64,000 bases of DNA, taken from positions 1-64,000 of the forward strand of contig CANJXF010000008.1 of the NCBI GenBank assembly GCA_947478865.1, read 5' to 3'. Each line of letters starts with the position of its first letter. Position 1 is the first letter of the stretch. Below the pieces are notes generated by a model, which was not told the DNA's origin, did not search any database, and saw only the letters and a list, made by a program, of their open reading frames with translations. The position numbers were made by a program, and so were the translations under genes. This document shows, piece by piece, positions 8,444-64,000 of the stretch. This DNA is from Verrucomicrobiales bacterium. Its GTDB lineage: Bacteria; Verrucomicrobiota; Verrucomicrobiia; Limisphaerales; CANJXF01.

Positions 8444-10465
8444 TTATTTATTTTTTTTGAGGTTTTCCCTGACCAATTCCCGGGCCTGTTCCACAAGGAG
8501 CCGGTCCTTTCGCAGATCCGCAAAACGAAACGGCGGCAATCCGCTCTGTTGCTGGCCAATCAATTCTCCTGGCCCGCGCAATCGCAAATCCTCCTCCGCA
8601 ATCCGAAATCCATCACGGCTCTCCTCGAGCACCCGCAGTCGTGCGCTCGCCGAATCGGTCTTTTCTGACGCAATTAAAATGCAAAATGAATCTTCCGCGC
8701 CGCGGCCAATGCGCCCGCGCAACTGATGCAACTGAGCCAGCCCGAATTGCTCGGCGTTCTCCACCAGCATTACCGTTGCATTCGGAACATCGATTCCCAC
8801 CTCGATCACGGAAGTCGCGAGGAGCATCTGAATTTTGTTGGCACGAAACGCGGACATGACGGATTCCTTTTCGCTGGAGCGCAATTTCCCGTGGAGCAAA
8901 CCGATCTCGTAAGGCGCAATAATTTTTTTAAGCTTCACGAATTCTTTCGTTACCGCCTTGATTCCGGCTTTCTCGTCGGCTTCTTCCAATCGCGGATAGA
9001 CGACGTAGGCTTGCCGGCCTTCCGAAAGCTTCTCGCGAATAAACTCCCAGACTTTGGGCAACTTTTCTTCCGCGCGAACATAGGTTTTTATTCGCGCTCG
9101 CCCAGCCGGGAGTTGGTCGATTACCGAGATGTCGAGATCGCCATATAAAGTCAGGCCCAGCGTGCGTGGAATCGGCGTCGCCGTCATCACCAGCAAGTGC
9201 GGGTAGATTCCTTTGCGCAATAACTTCTCGCGTTGCGCCACGCCAAACTTGTGTTGCTCATCGATGATGACCATCCCGAGCTTCTCGGGAGCGAAGGCAT
9301 TCTCGATTAATGCATGCGTTCCGACGTAAAGCGTCGCAGTTGGTTTGTCGGCGGGCGCGGCACTGAGTTTCAGCGAATCCTGTTTTGCAGCCCTTTCGCC
9401 CGTAGTTTTGGTGCTTCCCGTCAGCAACTCCACGGAAATGCCGAGCGAAAGAAACCAATTCTGAAAGTTTTTGAAATGTTGTTCGGCCAGAATCTCCGTC
9501 GGCGCCATCAAGGCAACATCGTAACCGCTCTCGAGCGCCATCAAGGCCGCGCTGGCGGCAACCACCGTCTTGCCGGAACCAACATCGCCCTGCAGCAAAC
9601 GTCGCATCGGATGCGCACCGCCCACGTCGGCTCGGATTTCGCGCAAAACTTTGGTCTGTGCTTCGGTCAGTTGAAAACCAAGTTGCGCCAGAAATTTCCG
9701 GATCAATTGATTCGTTCCAGAGCAAGGCAACCCGCGCGAATTCGCTTCCAATCGTTTGCGCCGCTTCTGGATTGTCGTCTGCAAATCGATCAATTCGTCC
9801 AGGGCCAAACGGCGGCGTGCGATTTCCGTGTCGTCCATTTCCTCGGGGCAATGAAGCAGACGTATCGCGTGGGCTCGACCGGGCAAACCGGCAATCATCA
9901 TTCCGGGATGCGGTTCGGCAATCTTGCTTTCAAACTGCTCGACCGTCCGCGAGATCAGGGAACGGATCCAACGCTGCGGCAAGCCTTCCGTCAGCGGATA
10001 AATGGGAACGATGCGATTCAGATGAATCAATGCTTCGAGCGATTCCACGACTTCCGTTTCGGGGTGGTCGATCGTGCGCGGTTTAAGCGAATTCAATTTT
10101 CCGTAAACGAGAATCTCATCGCCGACTTTGAAATAATTCTGCATGTAAGGCAGGTTCCACCAGCGGCAATGAAGTCGGGCGCTGCCGTCGTCTAAAATAA
10201 ACTCGAAGACGGATTTCGCTCCGCCCCGCCAGCGTTTCAAACCGGCGGCAATGATTTTCCCACGAGCGGTCGCGGCTTCGTTCATTTGCATTTCGGCGAT
10301 GGAAATAAAATGTCGCCGATCTTCGTAACGACGCGGGCGATGCAGCAACAAATCGTCGACGGTGCGGATGTTAAGGCGGGCCAGCTGTGCGGATCGCTCA
10401 GCCCCGACTCCGCGCAGTTCGCCAAGAGGCAAAACCGCAGGCGAAGATGGCGTCGGCACAGACAT
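8444..10465 (-). CDS. recG: ATP-dependent DNA helicase RecG
   Basis: RecG reverses stalled replication forks and branch-migrates Holliday junctions. The N-terminal wedge domain, with an OB fold, starts around LRGVGAERSAQLARL. The helicase core has Walker A in LLQGDVGSGKTVVAA, the APTEILAEQHF motif, the RecG-typical DEQH box (VIIDEQHKFG), TATPIPRTL and LLATSVIEVGIDVPNA, and the Q-L-R-G-R-I-G-R-G motif VI. I start at the ATG at 10465, giving 673 residues, normal for RecG. The open frame runs on to 11098, but that part is not RecG-like and collides with two plus-strand genes. The gene is divergent from the 45-residue lipoprotein gene. Confidence 0.96.
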   Translation of the reverse strand: MSVPTPSSPAVLPLGELRGVGAERSAQLARLNIRTVDDLLLHRPRRYEDRRHFISIAEMQMNEAATARGKIIAAGLKRWRGGAKSVFEFILDDGSARLHCRWWNLPYMQNYFKVGDEILVYGKLNSLKPRTIDHPETEVVESLEALIHLNRIVPIYPLTEGLPQRWIRSLISRTVEQFESKIAEPHPGMMIAGLPGRAHAIRLLHCPEEMDDTEIARRRLALDELIDLQTTIQKRRKRLEANSRGLPCSGTNQLIRKFLAQLGFQLTEAQTKVLREIRADVGGAHPMRRLLQGDVGSGKTVVAASAALMALESGYDVALMAPTEILAEQHFKNFQNWFLSLGISVELLTGSTKTTGERAAKQDSLKLSAAPADKPTATLYVGTHALIENAFAPEKLGMVIIDEQHKFGVAQREKLLRKGIYPHLLVMTATPIPRTLGLTLYGDLDISVIDQLPAGRARIKTYVRAEEKLPKVWEFIREKLSEGRQAYVVYPRLEEADEKAGIKAVTKEFVKLKKIIAPYEIGLLHGKLRSSEKESVMSAFRANKIQMLLATSVIEVGIDVPNATVMLVENAEQFGLAQLHQLRGRIGRGAEDSFCILIASEKTDSASARLRVLEESRDGFRIAEEDLRLRGPGELIGQQQSGLPPFRFADLRKDRLLVEQARELVRENLKKNK

Positions 10466-10553
10466 TCGCTGCACAATATTCAAAGCTGGGAAAACGTCAA
10501 AGTGGGAATCCGAACCATTGCAAACTGCGACCATGCAAAATAGAGTCCAAGCC

Positions 10554-10691
10554 ATGAAGCGTGAACCGAATATTGGGCAGATAGCGTTCTCCCTGGTTTT
10601 GCCAGCCCTCCTCCTGTTGGGATGCCGCCTCTGGAACGACCAAAAGGGCACGCCGATTGAATTCAATTTTGAAGTTCCTCCAACCTCATAA
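10554..10691 (+). CDS. 45-residue lipoprotein
   Basis: From the ATG at 10554 the frame encodes a start with KRE, a hydrophobic stretch (IAFSLVLPALLLL), the lipobox LGC with Cys24, and a short tail ending FNFEVPPTS. It ends two bases before the ATG of the next gene, so the two are very likely co-transcribed. No family is recognised. An ATG seven codons upstream (10533) is possible. The signal sequence and the tight spacing to its neighbour are the main support. Confidence 0.6.
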   Translation: MKREPNIGQIAFSLVLPALLLLGCRLWNDQKGTPIEFNFEVPPTS

Positions 10692-10693
10692 TC

Positions 10694-11302
10694 ATGCCCA
10701 AAGATTCTGAATCTCCCATCGATCGACTTTGGCTTGAATACAGCCTCGTCTTCAAAAATTTCGACGACCACACCCTGGCGCGCTGGATGGCGCAAACCTT
10801 GGGCCAGCTCGAAGGTTCGGCGTGGCGAATGTCGCATCCATTGCTCGGCGCATATCGTTTGGCCGCGCAACTCGCCCACGACCGGCAGATCTGGCTCAAA
10901 CGGCTTGCGACCGCGCCATCGGCTTACCCGGAATCGCCTTGTTGCCGCGCGCCGATGCTCGCGCTGCTGACCCGCGACGTCGTGGAATCCGGATTGATTT
11001 GCCAGCATTGCACCGGCACAGCGGTCGCCTTTGAAGATATTCCCGATGCTCTGCAAAGCGAACTGCGAAAATGGGCCGAGGAATATGCGCCAGTTCACGC
11101 GGTTTCACATTGGGACGAACGCGAACGCAAAAATGTCCGCGACTTCGAAGATGCCTGTGAAAATGCCGCGCTCCACGCCGAGAAGTTACTGAGCCGAGCC
11201 GGCGCTGAACTCGCGCCAAAATTGTTGGAATATTATCCCGCCATCGTTTGGGAAGATCAGGACGAATGCCTTGAAGTGCGCCCGGAAGACATCGAACTCT
11301 GA
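10694..11302 (+). CDS. Hypothetical protein with a Cys4 zinc-ribbon-like site
   Basis: This is a 202-residue soluble protein rich in Trp and acidic residues. Four cysteines in the middle (Cys83-Cys84 and Cys103-x2-Cys106, the latter in ICQHC) could bind zinc, although the first pair is adjacent rather than C-x2-C. Helical segments rich in Ala, Glu and Leu flank the site. I do not recognise the family. It starts two bases after the small lipoprotein gene, so they probably share a transcript. nagA lies 67 bases downstream on the same strand and may be part of the same operon. Confidence 0.65.
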   Translation: MPKDSESPIDRLWLEYSLVFKNFDDHTLARWMAQTLGQLEGSAWRMSHPLLGAYRLAAQLAHDRQIWLKRLATAPSAYPESPCCRAPMLALLTRDVVESGLICQHCTGTAVAFEDIPDALQSELRKWAEEYAPVHAVSHWDERERKNVRDFEDACENAALHAEKLLSRAGAELAPKLLEYYPAIVWEDQDECLEVRPEDIEL

Positions 11303-11369
11303 TCCAAGATTGCTCCAGCAACTTTAGAAATTCCTGTTCATTCCATAAATTCTGTCAAAAATTTACTTC

Positions 11370-12512
11370 ATGAACGAAGGCAAAATCTGCGCGAAACATT
11401 TCTCCACCGGCAAACCAGTTCGTGTCCGTTGGAAAAACGGGATCATCGCCAGCGTCGAGGAAAATTCTTCCGCCCCGGAAGATCTTTGGATCGCGCCCGG
11501 CCTCTTTGACGTGCAAGTAAACGGCTACGGCGGAATTGATTTCCAACAGGATGGAGTTACAAGGGAAGAATTGCTCAAAGCGGCGCGCCAAATTCGTCGC
11601 GATGGTTGTGGGCAGTTTTTGCTGACGCTCATCACGGATGAATGGATGAAACTCACGTCGCGCTTCCGACATTTTAAAAAATTGCGTGATGAGTCGTCAG
11701 AGCTAAAACAGGCCATCGCGGGTTGGCACATCGAAGGTCCTTTTCTTTCGGACCAACCCGGCTTTCACGGCGCACACAATCCTTTGGCGATGTGCGATCC
11801 GTCGCCGCAAAAAATTCGCGAACTGAGGGAAATTGTCGGGACTGATCCACTCCTGCTAACCCTTTCGCCGGAACGTTCTGGCTCGATCGACGCCATCACG
11901 CTGGCGAGGTCATTGGGAATTATCATCAGTCTTGGCCACACAAATGCATCGGCGGAAATTCTGCAACGCGCGATTGCCGCGGGTGCGACGGCTTTCACCC
12001 ACCTCGGCAATGGCTGCCCGCGCGAACTGGATCGGCAGGACAATATTCTTTGGCGCGTTTTTGATGCACCGGGAATCACGGCCAGTTTTATCCCTGACAA
12101 AATCCACGTTTCCCCTGCCCTGTTTCGACTCGCGCATCGGGCCATGCCCAAAGAAAAAATTATCTACACGACCGATTCGATGTCGGCTGGAGGCGCGCCG
12201 CCCGGGAAATATAAAATCGGCCACATGGAAGTGGAGGTTGGCGCCGATCAGATTGTGCGGCAGCCAGGCAAAACAAATTTCGCAGGGTCCGCGTTGCGTC
12301 CGATCGATGGAATTTTCCGCGCGGCGGAAATGTTGAACTGTTCGTGGCAGGAAATCTGGCCAAATTTTTCTACTCAACCCGCGCGCATGGTCGGCTTGAG
12401 CAACGAGTTGGCGGTGGGGAATGCAGCAAATTTCTACACGCTCAAAATCACGAATGAAAATCAATTGCAGGAATTGAAACTGGTGGCGAATAAAATGGAT
12501 ATCCGCGAATAA
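11370..12512 (+). CDS. nagA: N-acetylglucosamine-6-phosphate deacetylase
   Basis: NagA removes the acetyl group from GlcNAc-6-phosphate in amino-sugar and cell-wall recycling. The amidohydrolase barrel is recognisable from GLFDVQVNGYGGIDF, HIEGPFLSDQPGFHGAH (metal-binding Glu), SLGHTNASAE (metal His) and YTTDSMSAGG (catalytic Asp). At 380 residues the length is normal. One difference is FTHLGNGC where most NagA proteins have HLFNAM, a substrate-loop change that may alter specificity. No nagB or transporter is nearby. A hairpin repeat pair lies directly after the stop. Confidence 0.9.
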   Translation: MNEGKICAKHFSTGKPVRVRWKNGIIASVEENSSAPEDLWIAPGLFDVQVNGYGGIDFQQDGVTREELLKAARQIRRDGCGQFLLTLITDEWMKLTSRFRHFKKLRDESSELKQAIAGWHIEGPFLSDQPGFHGAHNPLAMCDPSPQKIRELREIVGTDPLLLTLSPERSGSIDAITLARSLGIIISLGHTNASAEILQRAIAAGATAFTHLGNGCPRELDRQDNILWRVFDAPGITASFIPDKIHVSPALFRLAHRAMPKEKIIYTTDSMSAGGAPPGKYKIGHMEVEVGADQIVRQPGKTNFAGSALRPIDGIFRAAEMLNCSWQEIWPNFSTQPARMVGLSNELAVGNAANFYTLKITNENQLQELKLVANKMDIRE

Positions 12513-12515
12513 AAC

Positions 12516-12625
12516 GGAGCGCCGGTTTCTAAACCGGCTTATGGCGTGGTATTTTCGAGCGGCTGGTTTTTATTCGATCCGACTTGGTTTGATAGAACGT
12601 TAAGCCGACGGCACGTCGGCGCTCC
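12516..12625. repeat. Inverted pair of REP-like hairpins
   Basis: Two imperfect palindromes are arranged head to head. The left unit (12516-12541) has GGAGCGCCG at its outer end, a GCCGGTTT/AAACCGGC stem and CGGCTTA at its inner end. The right unit (12601-12625) has TAAGCCG, a GCCGACG/CGTCGGC stem and CGGCGCTCC. The outer nine bases and inner seven bases of the two units are exact reverse complements. The layout matches bipartite REP (BIME-like) elements. No tyrosine transposase is visible in the window. Confidence 0.6.
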
Positions 12626-12675
12626 GGCGTGACTGCGACTCCGTCGCGTTTGGTTTGAGGGTCCAGCGAGTTTTC

Positions 12676-13158
12676 TCAGGCGGGCTTTGCTTCTTCCTCG
12701 TCGGAGCGAAATAACCGGGCGTTTTCCTTTCGCGCCAGCACGTAATCTACCGACCATCGGCCCGCTCCGTAGATTGAAATCATTACCAGCAGGAAGAGAA
12801 TCAGCGTGGTGAATTCAAGATCCTGCCGCGACTCGACCGCGCTAAATGCTTTAGGCAAATGGACGTAAAAAACCGCCATCGCCATAACGGGAATCTGCAC
12901 CAGCGCGGCCACTCTTGTGATCAAACCGATCGTCAGAAAAAATCCACCGGCCAGATGCGCGAGAATGACGAGATGCGCAATCATCCCGGATGCGATCCAT
13001 AAGTTGCCGGATTCTTCCATGAGCCGGACGAGGTCAGCTGTGTGCGACGCAAAATAAATCCCTTTCAAAAACAGAACCACGCCGAGGTAAATGCGGATGA
13101 GATCCAAAAAAATATCGCCGTGAATCTTAAGCCAATGATTGGTGTGTTCGGTGTTCAT
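12676..13158 (-). CDS. DoxX family membrane protein
   Basis: The 160-residue protein has four hydrophobic helices: FLDLIRIYLGVVLFLKGIYF, AHLVILAHLAGGFFLTIGL, AALVQIPVMAMAVFYVHL and FTTLILFLLVMISIYGAG. The R-I-x-x-G-x-x-F-x-x-K-G start of helix 1 and the GGxxLxxGLxTR motif in helix 2 fit DoxX/DoxD-type integral membrane proteins. Family members include a thiosulfate:quinone oxidoreductase subunit and redox-stress components. The exact role here cannot be told. It is transcribed toward the REP-like element and stands alone. Confidence 0.85.
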   Translation of the reverse strand: MNTEHTNHWLKIHGDIFLDLIRIYLGVVLFLKGIYFASHTADLVRLMEESGNLWIASGMIAHLVILAHLAGGFFLTIGLITRVAALVQIPVMAMAVFYVHLPKAFSAVESRQDLEFTTLILFLLVMISIYGAGRWSVDYVLARKENARLFRSDEEEAKPA

Positions 13159-13319
13159 TGCTGCTCCTTTCAGGGTTGATAAACCACGATAGAATGCGTC
13201 CGCCCAAAACGCAAATGGCGGCGGGCAACTCCGTCAGCCAGATAACCACTCAGCGATGAGGTTGAACACCCATTGTGAAAAGGCCGCGTGGGAATAGTTT
13301 CAGTCAAAAGGAGAACATT

Positions 13320-13577
13320 ATGGGAATCATCACCACACTCATTATTGGATTAGTCGTTGGAGCGGTCGCAAAGCTGTTGATGCCTGGAGATGATCCGGGC
13401 GGAATCATTATCACAATGCTGCTCGGCATTGCGGGCGCGTTCGCCGCCAAATTCATTGGGGAGGCTTTCGGCTTTTACAACGAAGGAGAAGCGGCGGGCT
13501 TCATTGCCTCCGTGGTCGGCGCGATGCTGCTGCTGTTTTTGTATCGTCTCATGGCTCGACGACGGATCAGCAAATAA
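13320..13577 (+). CDS. GlsB/YeaQ/YmgE family stress-response membrane protein
   Basis: This is an 85-residue protein with three membrane helices and the family's Gly pattern: [14 protein letters not shown] near the start, [12 protein letters not shown] in the middle and [14 protein letters not shown] at the end. GlsB/YeaQ proteins are small stress-induced inner-membrane proteins of transglycosylase-associated type. I start at 13320 because AAAAGGAGA lies just upstream of that ATG. The frame open from 13275 has no such site. It lies upstream of uvrB on the same strand, but uvrB has its own promoter-like sequence. Confidence 0.88.
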
Positions 13578-13614
13578 ACGAAACAGTCCCACACCATTCG
13601 GCGAGGTCGTCGCG

Positions 13615-13643
13615 TTGACACTCCTGGCCGGCGCTCGTAAGTT
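13615..13643 (+). promoter_or_regulatory. uvrB promoter, probably giving a leaderless mRNA
   Basis: A perfect TTGACA at 13615-13620 is followed after exactly 17 bases by TAAGTT at 13638-13643. The uvrB ATG begins seven bases after that, so the transcription start should coincide with the start codon. No Shine-Dalgarno sequence is visible. Confidence 0.6.
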
Positions 13644-13650
13644 CGCGGCG

Positions 13651-15681
13651 ATGTTCGAACTCGTTTCGTCTTACCAGCCCGCCGGAGATCAACCGCAAGC
13701 GATTGCGAAGTTGACGGAGAATTTTCTTGCCGGCACGCGACATCAAACGTTGCTCGGCGTGACCGGTTCGGGGAAGACGTTTTCCATCGCGAACGTCGTT
13801 AAGAACATCCAGCGTCCGACACTGGTTATTTCCCACAACAAAACGTTGGCGGCACAGCTTTACGCTGAATTCAAAAGCTTCTTCCCGAAAAACGCCGTGG
13901 AATATTTCGTCAGCTATTTCGATTACTACCAGCCGGAAGCCTACATCCCGCGCACCGACACATTCATCGAAAAAGATTCCAGCGTGAACGAGGAGATCGA
14001 GCGGTTGCGGCTTTCCACGATGAGCTCCCTCTTTTCCCGCCGCGACGTTCTGGTGGTGGCGAGTGTGTCGTGCATCTACGGCATCGGCAGCCGGGAAGAT
14101 TATGAAGCGCTGGTCATTGGCCTTCACGTCGGCATGGAAATGTCGCGCGAACAATTGCTCAGCCGTTTCGTCAGCCTGCTTTATTCGCGCAACGACATTG
14201 CCTTTGAGCGCGGAGAATTTCGCGTGCGGGGCGACACCGTCGAAATCCGTCCGTCGCATTCTGAGGAGGGTTTGCGCATCGAGTTTTTTGGCGACGAAAT
14301 CGAGCGCATCACCCGTTTTGATCCCTTGACCGGCGACAAATTGGAGTCGCTGCAATCGACCGTGGTTTATCCCGCGAAACAATTCGTCACCACCGAGAAT
14401 AAGACGAAGCGCGCCATCCTGAGCATCCGCGAGGAACTGGGCGATCGTATCGCGCAGTTCGAAAAAGTCGGCAAGCTGATCGAAGCGCAACGCATCAAAA
14501 TGCGCACCGAATATGATTTGGAAATGATGGAGGAAATGGGGTTTTGCTCCGGGATTGAAAACTATTCACGCCACCTCAGCGGACGTCCTCCGGGCTCGAT
14601 TCCGAACACGCTGCTCGATTTTTTCCCGGAGGATTTTCTGCTCGTGGTTGATGAATCGCACGCGACGATTCCGCAAATCGGCGGGATGTATGCCGGTGAC
14701 CGTTCGCGCAAAGAGGTTTTGGTCGAGCACGGATTTCGCCTGCCCAGCGCAATGGACAATCGCCCGCTGAACTTTTTGGAATTTCAATCGCACCAGAATC
14801 AAACCATCTACGTCAGCGCGACGCCCGGACCGCAAGAACTCGAATGGTCGAAGGGGCGTGTCGTTGAACAGATTGTGCGCCCCACCGGATTGATTGATCC
14901 AAAGATTACGGTGAAACCGCTGTCGGGTCAGATCGACGATTTGATCAACGAGGCGCGAAAGCGAGTCGAGTCCAAAGAGCGAATTCTCGTCACCACGCTG
15001 ACCAAACGCACCGCGGAAGAGCTGACTGATTACCTTCGCGATGTCGGGATCAACGTTCGCTATCTGCACAGCGAAATTGACGCAATTGAACGGGTGGAAA
15101 TCTTGCGGTCGCTTCGCAAGGGCGAGTTCGATGTGTTGGTCGGGATCAATCTTTTGCGTGAAGGATTGGATCTGCCGGAGGTTTCGCTCGTGGCGATTCT
15201 CGATGCGGATAAGGAAGGCTATTTGCGGAGCGCCACCAGCTTGATCCAGACCGCAGGACGCGCCGCCCGGCACCTCAACGGAGAGGTCATTCTCTACGCG
15301 GACGTGATGACGCAAAGCATTCAGAAATTTCTCGCGGTCTCAAATTATCGCCGGGAAAAGCAAGTCGCCTACAACAAGGAACACAACATCACCCCGCGCA
15401 GCGTCAGCCGGGCGGTGGAAGACAGCCTCGCCGTATATCACAGTGCCAAACGCAAGGCCGCCATGGTCCTGAACGAAGCGGGCGGAAACATTGACGTCAC
15501 CGAGACCATTCGCGAATTGGAGGCAGAGATGATCGAGGCGTCGAACAATCTGGAATTTGAAAAGGCCGCTTTAAAGCGCGACCAGATTCGCGAACTCAAA
15601 CGAGGCTTCAGCGATTCCAAAGAGCCGGCGGGCGAACCGGTCAGCTATAAAAAAACGAAGAAGCGCAAGCAGCGTGCTTGA
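13651..15681 (+). CDS. uvrB: Excinuclease ABC subunit B
   Basis: UvrB is the damage-verifying helicase-like core of nucleotide excision repair. It has Walker A in GVTGSGKTF, the DNA-clamping beta-hairpin [16 protein letters not shown], the Walker B variant [16 protein letters not shown], motif VI in [11 protein letters not shown] and a C-terminal UVR motif ([22 protein letters not shown]). From the ATG at 13651 it is 676 residues, the normal size. The open frame runs upstream to 13390, but that part overlaps the GlsB-type gene and is not UvrB-like. A promoter ends seven bases before the ATG. Confidence 0.98.
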
Positions 15682-52919: not shown

Positions 52920-54578
52920 ATGAGCCCTGTGAAAAAACATCTGCTTTGCTTTCTTTTCGGACTCTTCGCATGGGCTCATGCCGGTCGCGCCGCAGACGCT
53001 GCCCCGCGCTGGAACATCCTGTTCATTTTCGCCGATGACTGGGGCCGTTACGCCAGTTGCTACAAGGGGCTCGACGGCAGGCCGACTCTCAATGACGTGA
53101 TCAAGACGCCCAATGTGGATCGCGTCGCCCGCGAAGGCGTGCTGTTCAAGAATGCGTTTGTCAACGCGCCGAGCTGCACGCCGTGCCGCAGCTCGCTGCT
53201 CTCCGGCCGCTATTTTTTCAATTGCAACCGGGGTGCGATTCTCAACGGCGCAGTGTGGGATAGTTCAATCCCCACTTTTCCGCTGTTGCTCCGTGATGCC
53301 GGCTACAGCATTGGCAAGAGCTACAAGGTTTGGAGTCCCGGAACCCCGGTGGACGCACCGTTCGGCGGACAACAATATGCATTCGAAAAACACGGCAACA
53401 TGGCCCAGCATTTTTCCCAGCACGCCGCGCCAATGGTGCAGCAAGGGATGAGCGTCTCCCTGGCGCGAGAAAAAATTCTCGATCAAGTGCGCGGCAACTT
53501 TGAAGATTTTCTCGCGTCCCGCAAAGCCGGCCAGCCCTGGCATTATTTCTTCGGCCCCACCACGACCCATCGCACCTGGGTCAAAGGCTCGGGCAAATTG
53601 CTGTGGGGAATCGAGCCTGATTCGCTGAAAGGCAAGATGCCGAAGTTTCTTCCCGACGTGCCAGAAGTGCGCGAGGACGTGGCGGATTACCTCGGTGAAT
53701 GCCAGGCGGTGGATGCCTATGTGGGCGTGCTGCTCAAACGGCTCGAGGAAACCGGCGAGGCCAACCGCACGCTCATTGTGCTCAGCGGCGACCACGGAAT
53801 GCCGGGCGTGCCCGCAGGCAAATGCAATCTCTACGACATGGGCGTGAGCATTCCGCTGATCATGCGCGTGCCCGGAGCCAAGGGCGGACGCATCGTGGAT
53901 GATTTTGTCCGGCTGCCCGACCTTGCGCCGACGTTCATGGAAATCGCGGGTGTGGCACCGCCCGCGGGACTCTACGGGCGCACGCTGCTGCCGCTGTTAA
54001 AATCCGACAAAAATGGCCAGATCGACGCGACGCGCAACTGGGTCATCACCGGTCGCGAGCGCCACGTGGCTTCCGCACGCGAAGGCAACCTGCCCTACCC
54101 AATGCGCGCGCTGCGAACGCCGGAATTCGTTTACATTCGCAACTTCGCCCCCGACCGCTGGCCAATGGGGTCGCCGAAAGGTGTCACTCCAACAGAGATG
54201 CCGGACTTTGCCGCATTGCAAGGCGTCACCTACACCGCCTTTGCCGACATGGACGCCAGTCCGACCAAGGCTTGGCTTGTCATGCATCGCAACGAGCCGG
54301 ACTGGAAGTGGTACTACGAGTTCGCGTTCGGCAAACGTCCCGGGGAGGAACTTTACGATGTCCGCAAAGATCCTGATCAGGTGAACAACCTCGCTGCCGA
54401 TCCAGCTTTCGCCAAAATCAAACAGCAGCTCTCCCAACGTTTATTGAAAACGCTCACCGATGCGAAAGATCCGCGAATCATCGAACAACCACCGCGCTTC
54501 GAGCATCCACCCTTCACTGACATGAATGATAAGGAGACAAAAAGAGTTCCAGGCGACCCGAAGAAAACGAAGGAGTGA
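52920..54578 (+). CDS. Secreted sulfatase
   Basis: This 552-residue protein has a signal peptide (LLCFLFGLFAWAHAGRAAD) and a formylglycine-dependent sulfatase domain. The start NILFIFADDWGRYA has the metal-binding Asp pair. The sulfatase signature C-T-P-C-R has Cys86 as the residue to be converted to formylglycine, in SCTPCRSSLLSGRYF. VLSGDHGMPG provides the second metal site. Sulfatases remove sulfate from glycans or other esters. The Cys-type signature needs a formylglycine-generating enzyme, which is not in the window. PhoD follows on the same strand. Confidence 0.93.
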   Translation: MSPVKKHLLCFLFGLFAWAHAGRAADAAPRWNILFIFADDWGRYASCYKGLDGRPTLNDVIKTPNVDRVAREGVLFKNAFVNAPSCTPCRSSLLSGRYFFNCNRGAILNGAVWDSSIPTFPLLLRDAGYSIGKSYKVWSPGTPVDAPFGGQQYAFEKHGNMAQHFSQHAAPMVQQGMSVSLAREKILDQVRGNFEDFLASRKAGQPWHYFFGPTTTHRTWVKGSGKLLWGIEPDSLKGKMPKFLPDVPEVREDVADYLGECQAVDAYVGVLLKRLEETGEANRTLIVLSGDHGMPGVPAGKCNLYDMGVSIPLIMRVPGAKGGRIVDDFVRLPDLAPTFMEIAGVAPPAGLYGRTLLPLLKSDKNGQIDATRNWVITGRERHVASAREGNLPYPMRALRTPEFVYIRNFAPDRWPMGSPKGVTPTEMPDFAALQGVTYTAFADMDASPTKAWLVMHRNEPDWKWYYEFAFGKRPGEELYDVRKDPDQVNNLAADPAFAKIKQQLSQRLLKTLTDAKDPRIIEQPPRFEHPPFTDMNDKETKRVPGDPKKTKE

Positions 54579-56188: not shown

Positions 56189-56445
56189 CTTCGCGTCTCC
56201 GCCCAGTGCGCTGAACGATGCATTATATTAACAAGGTGAAATTTTCTCCGAGAAAACATCCTGAAATCTGACCTGGCCAAGGTCGGTCCGCGTCCCAAGT
56301 CACCAGAACATCAACTCGCGAAAACGCCGCCGCAACCGATCCGGTTCAGGCAATTTGCTCATACTGTTTCCTGAGGAATTTCTGGGCAAAGGTTACAGAG
56401 AAACTTCTTTGTAAGAAGGAAAAGTCGGTGCGGAGGATTAGCAAT

Positions 56446-56474
56446 TTGCCTGATGCGCGCTGAAGCAGTATAGA
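56446..56474 (+). promoter_or_regulatory. Promoter of the WXG100/FtsK-like operon
   Basis: TTGCCT at 56446-56451 is followed after 17 bases by TATAGA at 56469-56474. The ATG of the first gene is ten bases further, so the leader is at most a few bases. The 257 bases between PhoD and this promoter contain no recognised gene. Confidence 0.5.
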
Positions 56475-56484
56475 TATTCTCACT

Positions 56485-56757
56485 ATGCCGCAGGCCATCA
56501 TCGATCCGGAAGAAGTCAGGCGATTTGCCGAGGAGCTGAAACGGTTCAACGCCGATCTCCAGACAAAAATTTCTTTGCTGCAGGCGCGTTTTGCGTCGCT
56601 GGGCGATTCCTGGCAGGACCAGGAGCACACGAAGTTCTCGGAGGAATTCAAGCAGGCGGTGAAAGCGCTCAAAAAATTCAATGAGATTTCCACCCAGCAC
56701 ACGCCCTATCTCCTCCGCAAAGCGCAGCGGATCGAGGAGTATTTGAACCAGCGTTAG
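56485..56757 (+). CDS. WXG100-like small helical protein (first partner)
   Basis: This 90-residue protein is all helical, with two long helices and a turn around Ser42-Trp43-Gln44-Asp45 (the usual WXG position, with Asp instead of Gly). Its size and layout match the ESAT-6/WXG100 family of type VII secretion substrates. A second copy of the signature S-W-x-D-x5-F occurs in the third gene of the operon. No C-terminal Y-x-x-x-D/E signal is seen. It is the first gene of a four-gene operon that ends with an EccC/FtsK-like ATPase, and is probably a secreted or structural partner of that machine. The family call is from layout, not a search. Confidence 0.7.
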   Translation: MPQAIIDPEEVRRFAEELKRFNADLQTKISLLQARFASLGDSWQDQEHTKFSEEFKQAVKALKKFNEISTQHTPYLLRKAQRIEEYLNQR

Positions 56758-56761
56758 CGCC

Positions 56762-57325
56762 ATGCCGAACCGCGCCCATGTCACCTCGGTTGAAGCGCTC
56801 GAAGCGTTTCGCGCGAAACTCATTGTTTACCTGAGCAAGGCGCGCCCCACTTTGGAAGAAGTGAGCGATCAGGTGATCCGTACTCGCGTCTGGCTCGAAA
56901 GCACGCAGCGTGTTTACTGGCAGAATCAGGCGCGGCGCCGCGCCCAGAAACTTCAGGACGCGCAGCAAACGTTGTTCAGCGCCGAGCTGGCGAATCTTCG
57001 CGCGGTCACCGTGGCCGAGCGGATGGACGTTCAACGGGCCAAGCGCGCAATGGAGGAAGCGGAAGAAAAATTGAAGCGGATCAAAAAATGGGATCGCGAT
57101 TTCGGCAGCCAGGTTGAACCTTTGGCCCGGCAACTTGAAAAACTGCAAACGGTTCTGGCAAATAATCTGCCGGAGGCAATTGCCTTTCTCGCTGGAGCGG
57201 TGAAAAGCCTCGACGCCTACAATCAGGATGTTCGTTCGGGCGATTCCACCGGGGCAAGCGACGCCCCTTCCGCAACCAAAGAAGCACCCGCAGAAAACAA
57301 CAGCACGGCCCCGGAGCAGCCATGA
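56762..57325 (+). CDS. Coiled-coil protein of the WXG100/FtsK-like operon
   Basis: This 187-residue protein is mostly helical, with heptad-like coiled coil between about 30 and 150 (ARRRAQKLQDAQQTLFSAEL, QRAKRAMEEAEEKLKRIKKW). It ends in an Ala/Pro/Thr-rich low-complexity tail. No signal peptide or membrane helix is seen. It starts four bases after the first WXG100-like gene and overlaps the third gene by four bases, so it is translated with them. A chaperone, spacer or structural role in the secretion-like machine is inference. Confidence 0.75.
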   Translation: MPNRAHVTSVEALEAFRAKLIVYLSKARPTLEEVSDQVIRTRVWLESTQRVYWQNQARRRAQKLQDAQQTLFSAELANLRAVTVAERMDVQRAKRAMEEAEEKLKRIKKWDRDFGSQVEPLARQLEKLQTVLANNLPEAIAFLAGAVKSLDAYNQDVRSGDSTGASDAPSATKEAPAENNSTAPEQP

Positions 57326-57534
57326 GTTTAAACGCAAACAGAACTCGTTTGGCCGCGCTGACCAAGGCATTGTCCAACGACTGGAAGCAGACCAAGGAAT
57401 CGTGGCGCGACGCTAAGGCTCAAGAATTTGAGCAGCGTTATCTGCAAGAACTTTTCGACGGCGTGGATACGGCGGTTGCCGTGATGGACCAGCTGGATAA
57501 ACTTCTGAACAAAATCAAGACTGACTGTGAGTAA
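57322..57534 (+). CDS. WXG100-like small helical protein (second partner)
   Basis: This 70-residue helical protein carries Ser27-Trp28-Arg29-Asp30 and Phe36, the same S-W-x-D-x5-F spacing as in the 56485 gene (Ser42, Trp43, Asp45, Phe51). It is shorter and ends in a Leu-rich helix (VMDQLDKLLNKIKTDCE). The two may form a heterodimer, as EsxA and EsxB do. The ATG overlaps the previous stop by four bases. The next gene starts with GTG and overlaps its end by eight bases. No Y-x-x-x-D/E signal is present. Confidence 0.65.
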   Translation: MSLNANRTRLAALTKALSNDWKQTKESWRDAKAQEFEQRYLQELFDGVDTAVAVMDQLDKLLNKIKTDCE

Positions 57535-60500
57535 CCATTTTGGAGTAACACAAACGCTCGAACTCGTCGAAAACCTGCAACAGACGGTTGCCGAATTTGC
57601 GACGCGCGACGAAAAGTTGAATCAGGAATTCAACACGGGCATCACCGCCGAGCGGACGCGACGCGAAAAGGCGCTCGAACAAATGAACACGCGTTTGGCG
57701 GAGGCGATCGCTCAGGCGGACGCCGACTTTCAGGCGCGAAAAGAATTGGCCGAATCCAAACACAAAGCGCGCCGGGCGTGGATCAGTCGAGCACACAAGA
57801 ACAGCCAGAAAACAGCGCTCGGACGGATCGAAGATCGCGAGGGTCGCCGCAAACACAAGCTCCAGACCGAAACGATGCAGATGCATCGCAACCACGAAAC
57901 GGGGCTCGCGACGGCGGAGAAAACGATCATCGAATTCAAAACCAGCCTCGCCCAGGAGCAGGAACTTCTGGCGGGATTGGAGCTCAAGGCGCGCGATTCT
58001 TTCAAGGGTTACGGAAAATTTGTTCAACTTCTTTCGCATTCGAAGGAGCTCCCGGAGTCCGACCTGGCGAAAGATGAATATAAATTAATTGCGGAGCTCG
58101 ACACGCTGATCACGGAAACGCGCGAGGAGCTGGATCGGTTTGCAAGGATGCTGTTGCCGAAAATTTTCAAGCAGCGCATCGCGCTCTCGATCCTGGCGCT
58201 TTGCCTGATTCCGCTCGTGCCGGCGCTCCACTATTTTGGGAAGAATGTTCTTTCGTATCGCGACGCAGGAATCGCCATTGGAGGCATTTTCGTTCTCGGG
58301 TTCATTTTGCATCTTCTCGGCCGGCGTCAGGCCGAGCCGCGCGCGGCCCGCATTGCGCAATCCATCATTCGCGCGCGACGGCTTCACGATGTGTGCTATG
58401 CGAAAACCGATTCACGCTACGCTCGCGAAGTCGAGCGAGTGGAAAACGAATTCAAAGCCATAGGCCAATGGATCGAAAGCGAATGGAAAGCGGCGCTCGA
58501 AGAATCAGCGAGCGCGAAGGCGAATTACCCGGAACGGGTGGAGGACAAATTCACGCGCAGCCTCGCCAAAAATGAAGAGCTCTTTCAAGGCAGGCGGGAA
58601 CGTTTGGACGGCGATCACAAAATCGCCGTGGCGACGCTGGCGAGCGAATCAGCTTCAAAAAAGGCGGAATGGGCCAGCGTTTCCGAAGCGAAGGAAGCGA
58701 AGCTCAACGCAGACTTTCAGGCCCAGCGGCAAGCGCTTCGAGCCGATTGGGACGGCAGGCTTGTGCCGGTCTACGAAACCATTGGCGCCGTCGTTCCTGC
58801 TGCGGAAAAACTGTTTCCCAGCGCCAACCCAAGTTTTTGGAAAGAGTGGAGCGCTCCGGAGCGATTCGGGCAGGCCGCAAAGTTTGGCCGCCTCGACGTG
58901 GATGTTGAAAAACTGGCGGGCCGACTTCCGAAGGATGAATTTTTGCAATTGCCGGGACCGGCCCGGTTTCCTCTTCCGCTTTTGCTGACCTACCCGGACC
59001 AAGGCGCGTTGTTGATCGAAACAAAAGAGTCGGGCCGAACCGAAGCGATCGCCGCGCTGAATCAGACCATTCTGCGACTGCTCTCGACCGCGCCTCCTGG
59101 ACGGGTGAGCTTCACGGTGGTGGATCCAGTTGGCCTTGGACAGAATTTTTCCAGCATCATGCACATCGCGGATTACGCGGAGCATTTGATCAACAACCGG
59201 ATCTGGACGCAGCCCGGTCAAATCGAACAGAAGCTCACCGATTTGAATGAGCACATGGAAAAAGTCATCCAGATGTATCTGCGAAACGAATACGCCACGA
59301 TCGCGGAATACAACGAGCAGGCCGGAAACATTGCGGAGAAATATCATTTCCTTGTGGTTGCAGATTTTCCTTCAAATTTCACGGACGCGGCAGCCAAGCG
59401 GCTTTTAAGCATCGCGACCAGCGGCGCGCGCTGCGGCGTTTACACTTTGATTCATTGGGACCACAACCACCCTGCCCCGCTTGATTTTGTCCCGGACGAA
59501 TTGCGCAAGAGCAGCGTCACGATTCAATGCAAAGGAAATAAATTCACGCTGCTCGGCAAACCTTTGTCCGACACAAACTTGTTGCTCGATACGCCGCCGG
59601 ATGCCGAGCTGGTCACGGAATTCATCCACAAAGTCGGCAAGAGCAATCGCGATTCAAATCGCGTCGAAGTTCCGTTCTCGCACGTGGCGCCGCCCGATGC
59701 CGAGCTGTGGACCGGCGACACCACGAGCGAGCTGCGCGTTCCGATCGGCCGCACCGGCGCGACGAAGCTGCAGTACCTTTCGATCGGCAAGGGAACTCGC
59801 CAGCACGCTTTGCTCGCAGGAAAAACCGGTTCCGGAAAATCAACTTTGTTCCATGTCATCATTACGAACCTCGCGTTGTGGTGCAGTCCGGAGGAAGTGG
59901 AATTTTACCTGATCGATTTCAAAAAAGGCGTCGAGTTCAAGTGTTACGCTGAGAAAAAGCTTCCGCACGCGCGGGTGGTCGCAATCGAAAGCGATCGCGA
60001 ATTTGGCTTGAGCGTTTTGCAACGAGTGGACGACGAATTGAAGCGGCGCGGCGATTTGTTCCGCAAAGCGGGCGTGCAGGATCTTGCGGGTTACAAGAAA
60101 GGTGGCGGAACAGAAAGCGTTCCCCGCTCACTCCTGATCATCGACGAATTCCAGGAATTCTTCGTGGAAGACGATCGGATTTCGCAGACCGCTTCCGGTC
60201 TGCTCGACCGGATTGTGCGACAGGGACGCGCCTTCGGCATTCACGTTTTGCTCGGCTCGCAAACACTCGGTGGCGCCTACACGATGGCGCGCACGACGAT
60301 GGGCCAAATGGTGATCCGCATCGCGCTGCAATGTAATGAGGCCGACGCGTTTCTCATCATGGACGAAAACAATCCTGCGCCGCGCCTGCTCTCGCGCCCG
60401 GGCGAAGGTATTTACAACGATGCTGCCGGGAACATCCAGGGCAACAGCCCGTTTCAAGCGGTGTGGTTGCCGGACGAAGTGCGTGACAGCTACCTCGACA

Positions 60501-61429
60501 AAGTCACGGCGCGCGCCGCACGCGGCGAAATCAAATACCCCGGCCCCATTGTTTTCGAAGGCGACGCTCCCGCTGATGTTCGCGAGAACTTGGAGCTGAA
60601 CAGGTTCTTGAAAGCGGAAGCAGTCACGGCGGCGAGCGCCCCGCGCATCTGGCTCGGTGCGCCCAATTCGATCAAAGGGCCGACCGAAGCAGTGTTTCAT
60701 CGACAGAGCGGAAACAACCTTCTCATGGTCGGCCAGCGCGATGAGGCAATCCTCGCCATCTTATCGGTCGGCCTGATTTCTCTTGCCGCACAGCATCCGG
60801 TCGGTGCCGCGCAGTTTTTCGTCTTGGACGGCAACCCTCCTGGTTCGGCGCAGCGCGAGCTTCTCGAAAAAACCATCGCCGCAATTCCGCACAAGATCGC
60901 GCTCGTAAAACAAAACGAGTTGGCCGAGGTCATCAACGGCCTTGCGTCGGACCTGAAGGAACGCGCTGAAAGTCAGGATGCCACCTCTGCTCCATCAAAA
61001 TTCCTCTTCATTCATGGTTTGCAGAAATTCGGCAAGCTTCGTTACGAAGATGATTTCGGTTTTTCGAGCGGGGACGAAGCCACGGCGGCAAATCCGTCCG
61101 TAGAATTGAACAAGCTGATTTGCGAAGGACCGAGCTTGGGCATTCATGTGATCGCGACGTGCGACACCTATAACAACATGAATCGCTTTCTCAGCAAAAA
61201 GGCGTTCAGCGAATTCGAAATGCGCGTGCTGTTCCAAATGAGCGCAAACGATTCCGCCAGCCTCATCGATAATCCAAAGGCGGGCACGCTCGGATTGCAT
61301 CGCGCCCTCTTCTATAATGAGCAACAGGGGCATCTGGAATTGTTCCGGCCATACTCATTGCCGACCGGTGAATGGCTCCGCACGGTTGCCGCTGATTTAT
61401 CGCGCGCAATGTCCGACCGCAGCTTGTAG
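57527..61429 (+). CDS. Large membrane FtsK/EccC-like ATPase with three ATPase modules
   Basis: This 1300-residue protein starts with GTG. Residues about 1-210 are coiled coil, then two membrane helices lie at about 217-237 and 245-263, followed by a second coiled-coil stretch. Three FtsK-like modules follow. Module 1 (about 480-690) has no P-loop. Module 2 has Walker A G765-K-T-G-S-G-K771-S-T and Walker B Asp873-Glu874 (LLIIDEFQEF), with RQGRAFGIHVLLGSQ and an arginine-bearing PAPRLLSRPGEG. Module 3 (about 1040-1290) has a degenerate P-loop (VGQRDEA). EccC proteins of type VII secretion have the same three-module plan. The N-terminal coiled coil is unusual. It probably drives export of the WXG100-like pair. 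Confidence 0.85.
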   Translation: MSNHFGVTQTLELVENLQQTVAEFATRDEKLNQEFNTGITAERTRREKALEQMNTRLAEAIAQADADFQARKELAESKHKARRAWISRAHKNSQKTALGRIEDREGRRKHKLQTETMQMHRNHETGLATAEKTIIEFKTSLAQEQELLAGLELKARDSFKGYGKFVQLLSHSKELPESDLAKDEYKLIAELDTLITETREELDRFARMLLPKIFKQRIALSILALCLIPLVPALHYFGKNVLSYRDAGIAIGGIFVLGFILHLLGRRQAEPRAARIAQSIIRARRLHDVCYAKTDSRYAREVERVENEFKAIGQWIESEWKAALEESASAKANYPERVEDKFTRSLAKNEELFQGRRERLDGDHKIAVATLASESASKKAEWASVSEAKEAKLNADFQAQRQALRADWDGRLVPVYETIGAVVPAAEKLFPSANPSFWKEWSAPERFGQAAKFGRLDVDVEKLAGRLPKDEFLQLPGPARFPLPLLLTYPDQGALLIETKESGRTEAIAALNQTILRLLSTAPPGRVSFTVVDPVGLGQNFSSIMHIADYAEHLINNRIWTQPGQIEQKLTDLNEHMEKVIQMYLRNEYATIAEYNEQAGNIAEKYHFLVVADFPSNFTDAAAKRLLSIATSGARCGVYTLIHWDHNHPAPLDFVPDELRKSSVTIQCKGNKFTLLGKPLSDTNLLLDTPPDAELVTEFIHKVGKSNRDSNRVEVPFSHVAPPDAELWTGDTTSELRVPIGRTGATKLQYLSIGKGTRQHALLAGKTGSGKSTLFHVIITNLALWCSPEEVEFYLIDFKKGVEFKCYAEKKLPHARVVAIESDREFGLSVLQRVDDELKRRGDLFRKAGVQDLAGYKKGGGTESVPRSLLIIDEFQEFFVEDDRISQTASGLLDRIVRQGRAFGIHVLLGSQTLGGAYTMARTTMGQMVIRIALQCNEADAFLIMDENNPAPRLLSRPGEGIYNDAAGNIQGNSPFQAVWLPDEVRDSYLDKVTARAARGEIKYPGPIVFEGDAPADVRENLELNRFLKAEAVTAASAPRIWLGAPNSIKGPTEAVFHRQSGNNLLMVGQRDEAILAILSVGLISLAAQHPVGAAQFFVLDGNPPGSAQRELLEKTIAAIPHKIALVKQNELAEVINGLASDLKERAESQDATSAPSKFLFIHGLQKFGKLRYEDDFGFSSGDEATAANPSVELNKLICEGPSLGIHVIATCDTYNNMNRFLSKKAFSEFEMRVLFQMSANDSASLIDNPKAGTLGLHRALFYNEQQGHLELFRPYSLPTGEWLRTVAADLSRAMSDRSL

Positions 61430-62693: not shown

Positions 62694-62975
62694 CTAGGTT
62701 AAAACGATCTTGTCGCCTTCTTTCAAGGTGACAATCGCTTTTTTCCACGAAGGCGTCCGACCAGCGGCCGCCGTGCGTTTGCGGCGTTCTTTGCCGCGAA
62801 TATTCATGGTGTTGACACTCAGCACTTTCACTTTGAAGAGTTCCTGGACGGCTTGACGAATCTCAATTTTATTCGCGCGGCGATCGGCCACCACGGTGTA
62901 TTGGTTGAGTTTTTCAGCCTGGCGCGTTCCTTTTTCAGTGACGCGAACGGTCTTGATGATTTCGAAAGTGTTCAT
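62694..62975 (-). CDS. rplW: 50S ribosomal protein L23
   Basis: L23 lines the exit tunnel and is a docking site for trigger factor and SRP. The 93-residue protein has the family pattern IIKTVRVTEKGTRQ, QYTVVADRRANKIEIRQAV and the C-terminal KAIVTLKEGDKIVL. The length is normal. It follows rplD by two bases. The expected next gene, rplB, is absent: a terminator follows instead. Confidence 0.96.
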   Translation of the reverse strand: MNTFEIIKTVRVTEKGTRQAEKLNQYTVVADRRANKIEIRQAVQELFKVKVLSVNTMNIRGKERRKRTAAAGRTPSWKKAIVTLKEGDKIVLT

Positions 62976-62977
62976 GA

Positions 62978-63604
62978 TTAGATCTTGGCCAAACGTTCTT
63001 CAACTTTTTCAAATGCGCCACGCGTGAAAATCAATTTATCACTGCGCAATACCTGATAGGTATTGAGTTCCTCGCCAGTGGTGACTTCGACGTAGGAAAC
63101 GTTGCGGGAAGAACGAAGCAAATTCTGGTCGATTGCTTCAGAAACGATCAACGCGGTTCCATCGATGTCCAATGCGTTGAGGGCACTGAGAAAATCTTTG
63201 GTCTTCGGAGCAGCGAGCTTAAAGTCAGACACGATGGTCACATCGCCCATTTTAAGACGTTCACCCAGCGCTTTGCGCAAGGCCAGCTTCTTGGTCGAAC
63301 CATTGACTTTCTTGCTGAAGTCGCGTGGCTTCGGACCGAACACCACACCACCCCCGCGCCACAGAGGGGAACGGAAAGAACCGGCGCGAGCGCGACCCGT
63401 TCCTTTTTGTTTCCAAGGCTTTTTATTTGTTCCTTGAACTTCGCCAGCCGTCTTGGTGCAGGCGGTGCCGCTGCGTTGCGCAGCACGATAAGCGGTAACG
63501 GCATCATGAACGGCTTGCGTTCCTTTTCCGTCTTCAATCACCTCGAACTTCACTTCCAGTTCGCCGGCGCTTTTGCCTTTGATATCTTTAACAGTAAGCT
63601 TCAT
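62978..63604 (-). CDS. rplD: 50S ribosomal protein L4
   Basis: L4 binds 23S rRNA and reaches into the exit tunnel. The 208-residue protein has AVHDAVTAYRAAQRSGTACT, the tunnel loop PWKQKGTGRARAGSFRSP and GGGVVFGPKPRDFSKKVN, then LALRKALGERL. In many bacteria L4 also represses its own operon. It lies between rplC and rplW in the usual S10-operon order. Confidence 0.97.
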   Translation of the reverse strand: MKLTVKDIKGKSAGELEVKFEVIEDGKGTQAVHDAVTAYRAAQRSGTACTKTAGEVQGTNKKPWKQKGTGRARAGSFRSPLWRGGGVVFGPKPRDFSKKVNGSTKKLALRKALGERLKMGDVTIVSDFKLAAPKTKDFLSALNALDIDGTALIVSEAIDQNLLRSSRNVSYVEVTTGEELNTYQVLRSDKLIFTRGAFEKVEERLAKI

Positions 63605-63626
63605 AAAATTGTTCCTGCGAACTTAG

Positions 63627-64000
63627 TTATTTCTTAGCGGCCGGTTTCGCAGCGGCAGCTTTCGCTCCACCTTTGACTTTGCCAGGAACCCTAGGTTCCT
63701 TGCGGAGTTTTGCTGCTTCCGAGCCCTTCGGCAGTTTCTTGGATTCGCGGATGACGACGTAGCTGTTGTTGCCGCCGGGAATCGCTCCCTTAATCAACAA
63801 GAGATTGTCGCTTTCGCGAACCTGCATCACTTCGAGATTTTGCGTCGTGACCTGCACCTGACCCATGTGACCGGGCATGCGCATGCCGCGCATAACTGTG
63901 CCTGGAAACAAACGTTGTCCAATGGCACCGGGACGGCGCTTGAATCCTTTCGCACCGTGGGTCGAATCGCCACCACGAAAATTATGGCGCTTCATAACAC
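63627..64000 (-). CDS. rplC: 50S ribosomal protein L3 (C-terminal part, cut by window edge)
   Basis: Only the C-terminal 124 codons are in the window. The frame runs on past the right edge. It has the L3 pattern KRHNFRGGDSTHGAKGFKR, RPGAIGQ, GTVMRGMRMPGHMG and the NLLLIKGAIPGGNNSYVVI core. It ends in an Ala/Lys-rich tail (AAAAKPAAKK) that is longer than in many L3 proteins. It lies 22 bases upstream of rplD. Confidence 0.95.
   Translation of the reverse strand, partial: VMKRHNFRGGDSTHGAKGFKRRPGAIGQRLFPGTVMRGMRMPGHMGQVQVTTQNLEVMQVRESDNLLLIKGAIPGGNNSYVVIRESKKLPKGSEAAKLRKEPRVPGKVKGGAKAAAAKPAAKK

What the first reader, a model, noticed from the sequence alone, without database searches (positions are those of the whole stretch)
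56446..61429. Minimal type VII secretion-like operon: two WXG-like partners, a coiled-coil protein and an EccC-type ATPase
Four tightly packed genes (spacings of +4, -4 and -8 bases) encode two small helical proteins, one coiled-coil protein and a 1300-residue membrane FtsK/EccC-like ATPase. The locus has its own promoter and is bounded by unrelated genes (PhoD, aldo/keto reductase). No EccB, EccD, EccE, mycosin, EssA/EssB or LXG toxin is nearby. Verrucomicrobiota are diderm, so export across two membranes by a system with only the ATPase would need a new mechanism or unlinked parts. It could also be a non-secretion machine built from WXG100 and FtsK parts.
Basis: partly seen in the sequence, partly recalled or inferred. 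Interest (0 to 1): 0.9.

Follow-up and report, generated by a model that had tools for sequence, protein, structure and literature searches.

The report
Toxin-less minimal type VII-like operon
A four-gene operon shared by many two-membraned Verrucomicrobiota bacteria encodes the motor and the small partner proteins of a stripped-down type VII-like secretion machine, but in place of the toxin carried by its known relatives it has only a toxin-free carrier protein, so its job is unknown and testable.

Summary
Four packed genes (gaps +4, -4, -8) encode A, a WXG100 protein; B, a long helical hairpin; C, a 70-residue WXG100-like protein; and D, a 1300-residue EccC/EssC-type ATPase with a TM hairpin and three modules, only the middle one with an intact P-loop. 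The order A-B-C-D is kept in 29 of 29 loci from the same order and 68 of 71 from a wider survey, in unrelated neighbourhoods. A and D co-occur; dN/dS is low in all four genes. YukC and YukD are absent. The claimed promoter was not found.

It is not an orphan. The same A-[B slot]-C-D layout occurs in Helicobacter and Caballeronia plasmids and CoCoNuT/TerY-P defence loci, where slot B carries a nuclease plus, in Helicobacter, a SUKH immunity protein. The literature already calls WXG+FtsK a 'minimal' type VII system. New here: a Verrucomicrobiota-wide lineage whose B has no toxin or immunity gene, one locus per genome, a very conserved A, an invariant C-terminal Cys in C, and a TM hairpin lost three times. 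I favour motor-driven export of an A/B/C complex into the periplasm (0.45); an intracellular WXG-motor machine stays open (0.3). New variant of a known kind.

The parts
56189..56484 (.). intergenic gap between phoD-like gene and gene A; presumed but unproven promoter region
   Evidence: coordinates; no sigma-70-like site found
56485..56757 (+). gene A: 90-aa WXG100 protein (motif W43-Q-D45, F51), closest solved relative H. pylori HP0062
   Evidence: Pfam WXG100 E 7e-10; profile vs PDB 3fx7 E 3e-10 and B. anthracis EsxB E 3e-7; only WXG100 in the genome; 72.5% mean pairwise identity over the family
56762..57325 (+). gene B: 187-aa long helical hairpin (helices 8-76 and 84-160) with a short disordered variable tail; occupies the effector-carrier slot of related loci but has no toxin domain
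   Evidence: AF2 mean pLDDT 88.5; no family; tail 16% mean identity vs 42% for residues 1-160; slot comparison
57322..57534 (+). gene C: 70-aa WXG100-like protein (W28-R-D30, F36) ending in invariant Cys69 followed by Glu70
   Evidence: NCBIfam WXG100_ESAT6 E 0.0025, the most frequent hit, in 12 of 67 members; C profile matches the Caballeronia WXG100 (E 2e-6 among 24 proteins); invariants
57527..61429 (+). gene D: 1300-aa EccC/EssC-type membrane ATPase
57527..58156 (+). D residues 1-210: fast-evolving N-terminal coiled coil (in place of EssC's FHA domains)
   Evidence: 26% mean identity; no FHA hit; alignment
58178..58321 (+). D residues 218-265: TM hairpin with short outer loop; lost in L101, L132, L051
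58337..58786 (+). D residues 271-420: coiled-coil stalk
   Evidence: 23% mean identity
58844..59671 (+). D module 1 (residues 440-715): ATPase-like, no P-loop
59699..60481 (+). D module 2 (residues 725-985): intact FtsK/EccC motor; P-loop GKTGSGKS (59819-59842) invariant or nearly so in 84 members, Walker B LLIIDEF
   Evidence: 81% mean identity
60644..61396 (+). D module 3 (residues 1040-1290): ATPase-like, degenerate P-loop (GQRDEA)

Best explanation
A-B-C-D is a stand-alone, toxin-free member of the WXG100 / EssC-like 'minimal type VII' module family. SHOWN: gene content, conserved order, homology of A and D to known T7-like parts, one active ATPase module between two inactive ones, a TM hairpin in most members, the corresponding slot B of relatives holding nucleases, and only one such locus in this genome. 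INFERRED: A forms a hairpin dimer as HP0062 does; A and C bind the long B hairpin as a folded pre-export complex, as small WXG partners do with LXG or PPE carriers; D, a hexamer held at the inner membrane by its TM hairpin, recognises that complex through its inactive module 3 and pushes it across the inner membrane using ATP hydrolysis in module 2. Because B lacks a toxin tail and no immunity gene is present, the exported A/B/C complex is the end product, a periplasmic or envelope element rather than a weapon. How anything would cross the outer membrane is unknown, and may not be needed.
For: A is WXG100 with HP0062 and EsxB as nearest solved relatives. The modelled ATPase region (D 440-1300) matches EccC and EssC across three modules, with rank 1 4nh0 at E 8e-31 over 964 columns (730 residues aligned, Z 27). 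TM hairpin in most of 87 members. Conserved operon and overlaps, A-D co-occurrence, A-B co-occurrence across the phylum, strong purifying selection. Same layout with a WHH/colicin-DNase plus SUKH immunity in slot B in Helicobacter and a long coiled coil plus C-terminal domain in Caballeronia and in genome G269. Every B in Verrucomicrobiota is short: 155-232 aa in the operon surveys, and the phylum scan found one B per genome with open frames up to 256 aa. Literature: WXG+FtsK as minimal T7SS (PMC4978471), small WXG-like co-secretion partners (PMC11217815).
Against: No secretion has been shown for any Gram-negative WXG100/FtsK pair (PMC10765036). No channel, periplasmic or outer-membrane partner is linked, and YukC and YukD are absent. 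The TM hairpin was lost three times while A-B-C and the motor stayed intact. CoCoNuT relatives have no TM (PMC11090510). A and B showed no profile-profile similarity beyond noise, so the carrier role of B rests on position, length and predicted fold. Sequence homology of B to the toxin-bearing carriers is at best marginal (Rhodococcus, E 3.5e-5 among 24 proteins, coiled-coil bias likely).
Confidence: 0.45

Rival explanations
1. An intracellular WXG100-motor machine, not a secretion system: D pulls on or remodels a cytoplasmic substrate (nucleoprotein or protein complex) at the membrane face, with A, B and C as adaptors; the TM hairpin is only a tether. This would resemble the defence or stress-response use proposed for TerY-P and CoCoNuT loci.
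For: TM hairpin lost three times independently with everything else kept; TM-less relatives sit in nuclease/CARF/kinase defence islands (PMC11090510); middle module fits the FtsK motor as well as EccC (Z 29.3 vs 27.0-27.6); no envelope partner genes.
Against: Nearly all members keep the TM hairpin; the whole three-module chain best matches EccC/EssC; WXG100 proteins are secreted in the characterised systems (PMC3935865, PMC4010439); no defence genes flank the operon and flanks are not shared.
Confidence: 0.3
2. A contact-antagonism T7-like system with toxins encoded elsewhere in the genome, recruited through A or C; B is a docking adaptor.
For: Related operons carry nuclease plus immunity in slot B; T7SSb effectors can be unlinked (PMC10765036).
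Against: No second A-, B- or C-like domain in the genome at E<0.1; one A per genome in the order except one fragmentary MAG; no immunity-like gene next to the operon; A is highly conserved, not diversifying.
Confidence: 0.12
3. A degenerate remnant of a toxin-delivery island, kept by chance.
For: Patchy presence (23 of 40 good genomes in the order; 15 of 252 across the phylum sample).
Against: dN/dS about 0.0-0.25 in all four genes, P-loop lysine and serine intact in 84/84, conserved overlaps, present in several orders.
Confidence: 0.03
4. A DNA translocase operon (FtsK-like chromosome or plasmid segregation) with accessory helical proteins.
For: FtsK-superfamily motor; structural fit of the middle module to FtsK and TcpA.
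Against: The genome has a separate FtsK (motor in L002); profile scores favour EccC (108 bits) over FtsK (22-37 bits); WXG100 partners are not part of known DNA translocases; absent from many near-complete genomes.
Confidence: 0.1

Closest known systems
H. pylori HP0062 / HP0066 'WXG100 secretion system' and the related operon on Helicobacter plasmid pNHP190012_1
   Same: A is homologous to HP0062 (E 3e-10; WxD rather than WxG motif in both); gene order A - B slot - C - FtsK ATPase on the plasmid; Gram-negative host
   Different: Slot B there is a WHH/colicin-DNase toxin followed by SUKH immunity; ATPase 823 aa against 1300; the C-slot protein shows no clear sequence match
WXG100/EssC-like operon of TerY-P and Type III-A CoCoNuT loci (Anantharaman 2012; PMC11090510), e.g. 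Caballeronia pSBC2-5 and L165 of G269
   Same: N-terminal coiled coil, three ATPase domains with only the middle one active, two WXG100-like proteins of which one is atypical, coiled-coil protein between them; A 42% identical
   Different: There: nuclease-bearing coiled-coil protein, VWA/CARF/kinase/phosphatase neighbours, ATPase without TM. Here: no nuclease, no such neighbours, TM hairpin, stand-alone and Verrucomicrobiota-wide
T7SSb (EsxA, EssC, EssB/YukC, EsaB/YukD, EssA, EsaA)
   Same: WXG100 + EssC-type multi-module membrane ATPase
   Different: No YukC or YukD, no FHA domains on the ATPase, one ATPase module active instead of D1+D2
T7SSa / ESX (EccB-EccE, mycosin)
   Same: WXG100 pair and EccC-like ATPase with TM hairpin; EccCa is the best NCBIfam model
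   Different: No linked EccB, EccD, EccE or mycosin; different TM position, after a 210-residue coiled coil
FtsK DNA translocase
   Same: Fold of the active module (Z 29)
   Different: Three-module chain, WXG100 partners; a true FtsK exists elsewhere in the genome

Membership tests
Type VII secretion system in the broad sense (WXG100 + EccC/EssC ATPase) | WXG100 protein encoded with the ATPase | tested here: met
   Pfam WXG100 above cut-off; conserved linkage
Type VII secretion system in the broad sense (WXG100 + EccC/EssC ATPase) | FtsK/SpoIIIE ATPase of EccC/EssC type with tandem modules | tested here: met
   Best NCBIfam and PDB matches EccC; three-module match to 4nh0
Type VII secretion system in the broad sense (WXG100 + EccC/EssC ATPase) | ATPase anchored in the inner membrane | tested here: met
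   TM hairpin 218-265 in the window protein and most members, absent in 3 of 87
Type VII secretion system in the broad sense (WXG100 + EccC/EssC ATPase) | ATPase-dependent secretion of WXG100 proteins | not testable with these tools
   needs a mutant and fractionation
T7SSb | EssB/YukC and EsaB/YukD | tested here: not met
   no match genome-wide, B. subtilis control rang
T7SSb | N-terminal FHA domains on EssC | tested here: not met
   no FHA hit; coiled coil instead
T7SSa/ESX | EccB, EccD, EccE, mycosin | tested here: inconclusive
   none in the flanks; EccB not found genome-wide but its control did not ring; others not searched
WXG100/FtsK module of HP0062-HP0066, TerY-P and CoCoNuT loci | A homologue, C-slot small protein and three-module ATPase with only the middle module active, in order A-B-C-D | tested here: met
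WXG100/FtsK module of HP0062-HP0066, TerY-P and CoCoNuT loci | nuclease in slot B (with immunity gene in Helicobacter) | tested here: not met
   B is a hairpin plus short disordered tail, no nuclease; C follows directly
WXG100/FtsK module of HP0062-HP0066, TerY-P and CoCoNuT loci | VWA/TerY, kinase, phosphatase, McrBC neighbours (TerY-P/CoCoNuT types only) | tested here: not met
   flanks unrelated and not shared
FtsK DNA translocase | profile and architecture of FtsK | tested here: not met
   FtsK model 29 bits vs EccCa 113 bits; separate FtsK elsewhere

The most novel reading that the evidence does not exclude
The operon is a toxin-free, housekeeping-like WXG100/EssC machine that works without any other dedicated envelope component, and in some lineages without a membrane anchor: either a type VII-like export device reduced to motor plus substrate complex in a diderm cell, or a WXG100-based motor with a non-secretory job.
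Probability: 0.35. Interest if true: 0.85.

Novelty: new variant of a known kind. Interest (0 to 1): 0.6.

Why it matters
Whether the bare WXG100 + EssC pair can do anything on its own, and whether any Gram-negative WXG100 system secretes, are open questions (PMC10765036). This lineage gives a clean natural test: four genes, one copy per genome, no toxin and no immunity gene, intact membrane and soluble forms of the ATPase in sister lineages, and close relatives in named isolates (Verrucomicrobium sp. BvORR034 and BvORR106). It also suggests that a delivery module for nuclease effectors was either disarmed into, or derived from, a toxin-free cellular machine.

Tried and rejected
Own promoter: no sigma-70-like site. 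Conserved neighbours: none beyond A-D. Further WXG-, B- or C-like proteins as substrates in the genome: none. Phage carriage: the viral-contig scan found only generic FtsK-like matches. Known defence system: PADLOC gave only generic motor and coiled-coil matches. A-C profile-profile alignment put the WxD motifs in register but with negligible probability, so C's WXG100 kinship rests on HMM hits. B against PDB by fold gave only generic coiled coils. The Cys-Glu end of C as a by-product of the overlap with D's GTG start was rejected: Cys is kept where D starts elsewhere. A three-group ATPase tree cannot by itself root EccC against FtsK kinship. Anantharaman et al. 2012 is not held in the library and was used only as cited by others.
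Full report
WHAT IS THERE. The window lies in a 4.4-Mb, 97% complete genome (G000) whose closest named relatives are Pedosphaera, Limisphaerales and Verrucomicrobia subdivision 3 MAGs. Four genes on the + strand are packed with gaps of +4, -4 and -8: A 56485-56757 (90 aa), B 56762-57325 (187 aa), C 57322-57534 (70 aa), D 57527-61429 (1300 aa). They lie between a PhoD-like gene and an aldo/keto reductase.

THE PROTEINS. A is a WXG100 protein above Pfam's cut-off. Its family profile finds as nearest solved structures H. pylori HP0062 (E 3e-10) and B. anthracis EsxB (E 3e-7). HP0062 is an antiparallel hairpin dimer with a WRD motif (PMC3397514); A has WQD at the same place. C is a shorter WXG100-like protein (W28-R-D30...F36): weak hits to the WXG100 model in 12 of 67 members, the most frequent match, and its profile matches the Caballeronia WXG100. 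All 67 aligned C proteins have Cys69, nearly all followed by a final Glu, also where D does not overlap C. B has no family; AlphaFold2 gives one very long helical hairpin (residues 8-76 and 84-160, mean pLDDT 88.5) and a disordered tail. D has an N-terminal coiled coil, a TM hairpin (218-265), a second coiled coil and three ATPase-like modules. Only module 2 has a P-loop, kept in all 84 members counted; modules 1 and 3 are degenerate. The modelled 440-1300 region matches EccC and EssC over all modules (Foldseek rank 1, 4nh0, E 8e-31); the middle module alone fits FtsK equally well. By sequence, EccC scores far above FtsK.

CONSERVATION. A-B-C-D is complete and in order in all 29 loci of the order with room for it and in 68 of 71 named genome loci with room, including Chthoniobacteraceae, Prosthecobacter- and Verrucomicrobium-labelled records and one labelled Methylacidimicrobium. 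In the three exceptions A, or A and B, are missing upstream (L110, L123, L143). The -4 and -8 overlaps are kept in most loci. Flanking genes are different nearly everywhere. In the order, A occurs in 30 of 58 genomes (23 of 40 good ones), and every A-bearing genome has D; the D-only genomes are contig-edge or fragment cases. In a sample of 289 phylum genomes, 15 have B and all of these have A; one further genome has only a distant A. Members outside the class (L156-L158, L161, L162) have the same operon. Mean pairwise identity: A 72.5%, D module 2 81%, modules 1 and 3 54-57%, B helices 42%, C 43%, D coiled coils 23-26%, B tail 16%. dN/dS is mostly below 0.25 for all four genes in eleven close pairs.

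RELATIVES THAT EXPLAIN SLOT B. On a Helicobacter plasmid the order is A (89 aa) - 340-aa protein - SMI1/KNR4 protein - 77 aa - FtsK ATPase. The 340-aa protein ends in a WHH/colicin-DNase nuclease and the next gene is a SUKH immunity protein. On Caballeronia plasmid pSBC2-5 and in genome G269 (L165) the order is VWA - A - 436/442-aa coiled-coil protein with a C-terminal domain - 113/125 aa - 76/82 aa - ATPase, followed by CARF, phosphatase and kinase genes. This is the Type III-A CoCoNuT/TerY-P arrangement described in PMC11090510, which reports an EssC homologue with a long N-terminal coiled coil and only the central of three ATPase domains active, two WXG100 proteins (one without the motif) and a coiled-coil nuclease, and cites Anantharaman et al. 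2012 for its stand-alone occurrence as a secretion system. D of the window aligns with all of these ATPases (E down to 1e-142). Slot B is therefore, by position, the effector-carrier place. In Verrucomicrobiota it holds only the hairpin: B is 155-232 aa in the operon surveys, there is one B per genome, and no immunity gene. G269 carries both types side by side (L157 and L165).

MEMBRANE ANCHOR. The TM hairpin is present in nearly all members but cleanly missing in L101, L132 and L051, with the P-loop and A-B-C intact. On the D tree these are three separate changes. The anchor is thus dispensable at times, which weakens, but does not exclude, a role in translocation. L080 and L100 are TM-bearing sisters of two of them.

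MECHANISM. Shown: parts, order, homology, single active motor, toxin-free slot B, single locus, selection. Inferred: A and C bind the long B hairpin like small WXG partners on an LXG or PPE carrier (co-secretion partners are discussed in PMC11217815); the D hexamer recognises the complex and moves it across the inner membrane. An intracellular WXG-motor function is the main rival. Missing: YukC and YukD (control positive); EccB not found, but without a positive control.

NOVELTY. The pairing WXG100 + FtsK in Gram-negatives is known but unproven as secretion (PMC10765036; PMC4978471 calls it a minimal T7SS; PMC3397514). The described variants T7SSc-j are all Gram-positive (PMC11217815). I found no description of this Verrucomicrobiota lineage in the papers searched, which is an absence in an open-access library only. 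Hence: new variant of a known kind, interest 0.6.

Noticed in passing
57322-57534 (protein C) and its family: C ends in an invariant Cys (67/67), usually Cys-Glu-stop, even where gene D does not overlap it; a lone C-terminal Cys in a small helical protein may form a disulfide or be modified.
   Followed up: partly
L101, L132, L051 (gene D): The TM hairpin of the ATPase is precisely absent in three unrelated members with the operon otherwise intact.
   Followed up: yes
L165 (G269:C1:1714000-1733000) and L157: One Verrucomicrobiota genome carries both the toxin-free operon and a separate CoCoNuT/TerY-P locus with its own WXG100/FtsK module.
   Followed up: partly
L073, 3063-3966: What looks like a HigB/HigA-type toxin-antitoxin pair is inserted between genes B and C; identified by eye from the translation only.
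   Followed up: no
L110, L123, L143: Operons with C and D but without A (and in L110 without B) upstream; A may be lost, moved or dispensable there.
   Followed up: partly
L154 (Deinococcus plasmid), 9243-14482, and L153 (Rhodococcus plasmid), 8489-13919: Related ATPases sit with two small WXG-like proteins and a mid-size helical protein in a different order (ATPase first); the Rhodococcus one is beside TerD genes.
   Followed up: partly
window 52920-54578 and 62694-63995: A sulfatase-like gene upstream of phoD, and a ribosomal protein cluster (L23/L4/L3-like) on the minus strand downstream; both look ordinary.
   Followed up: no
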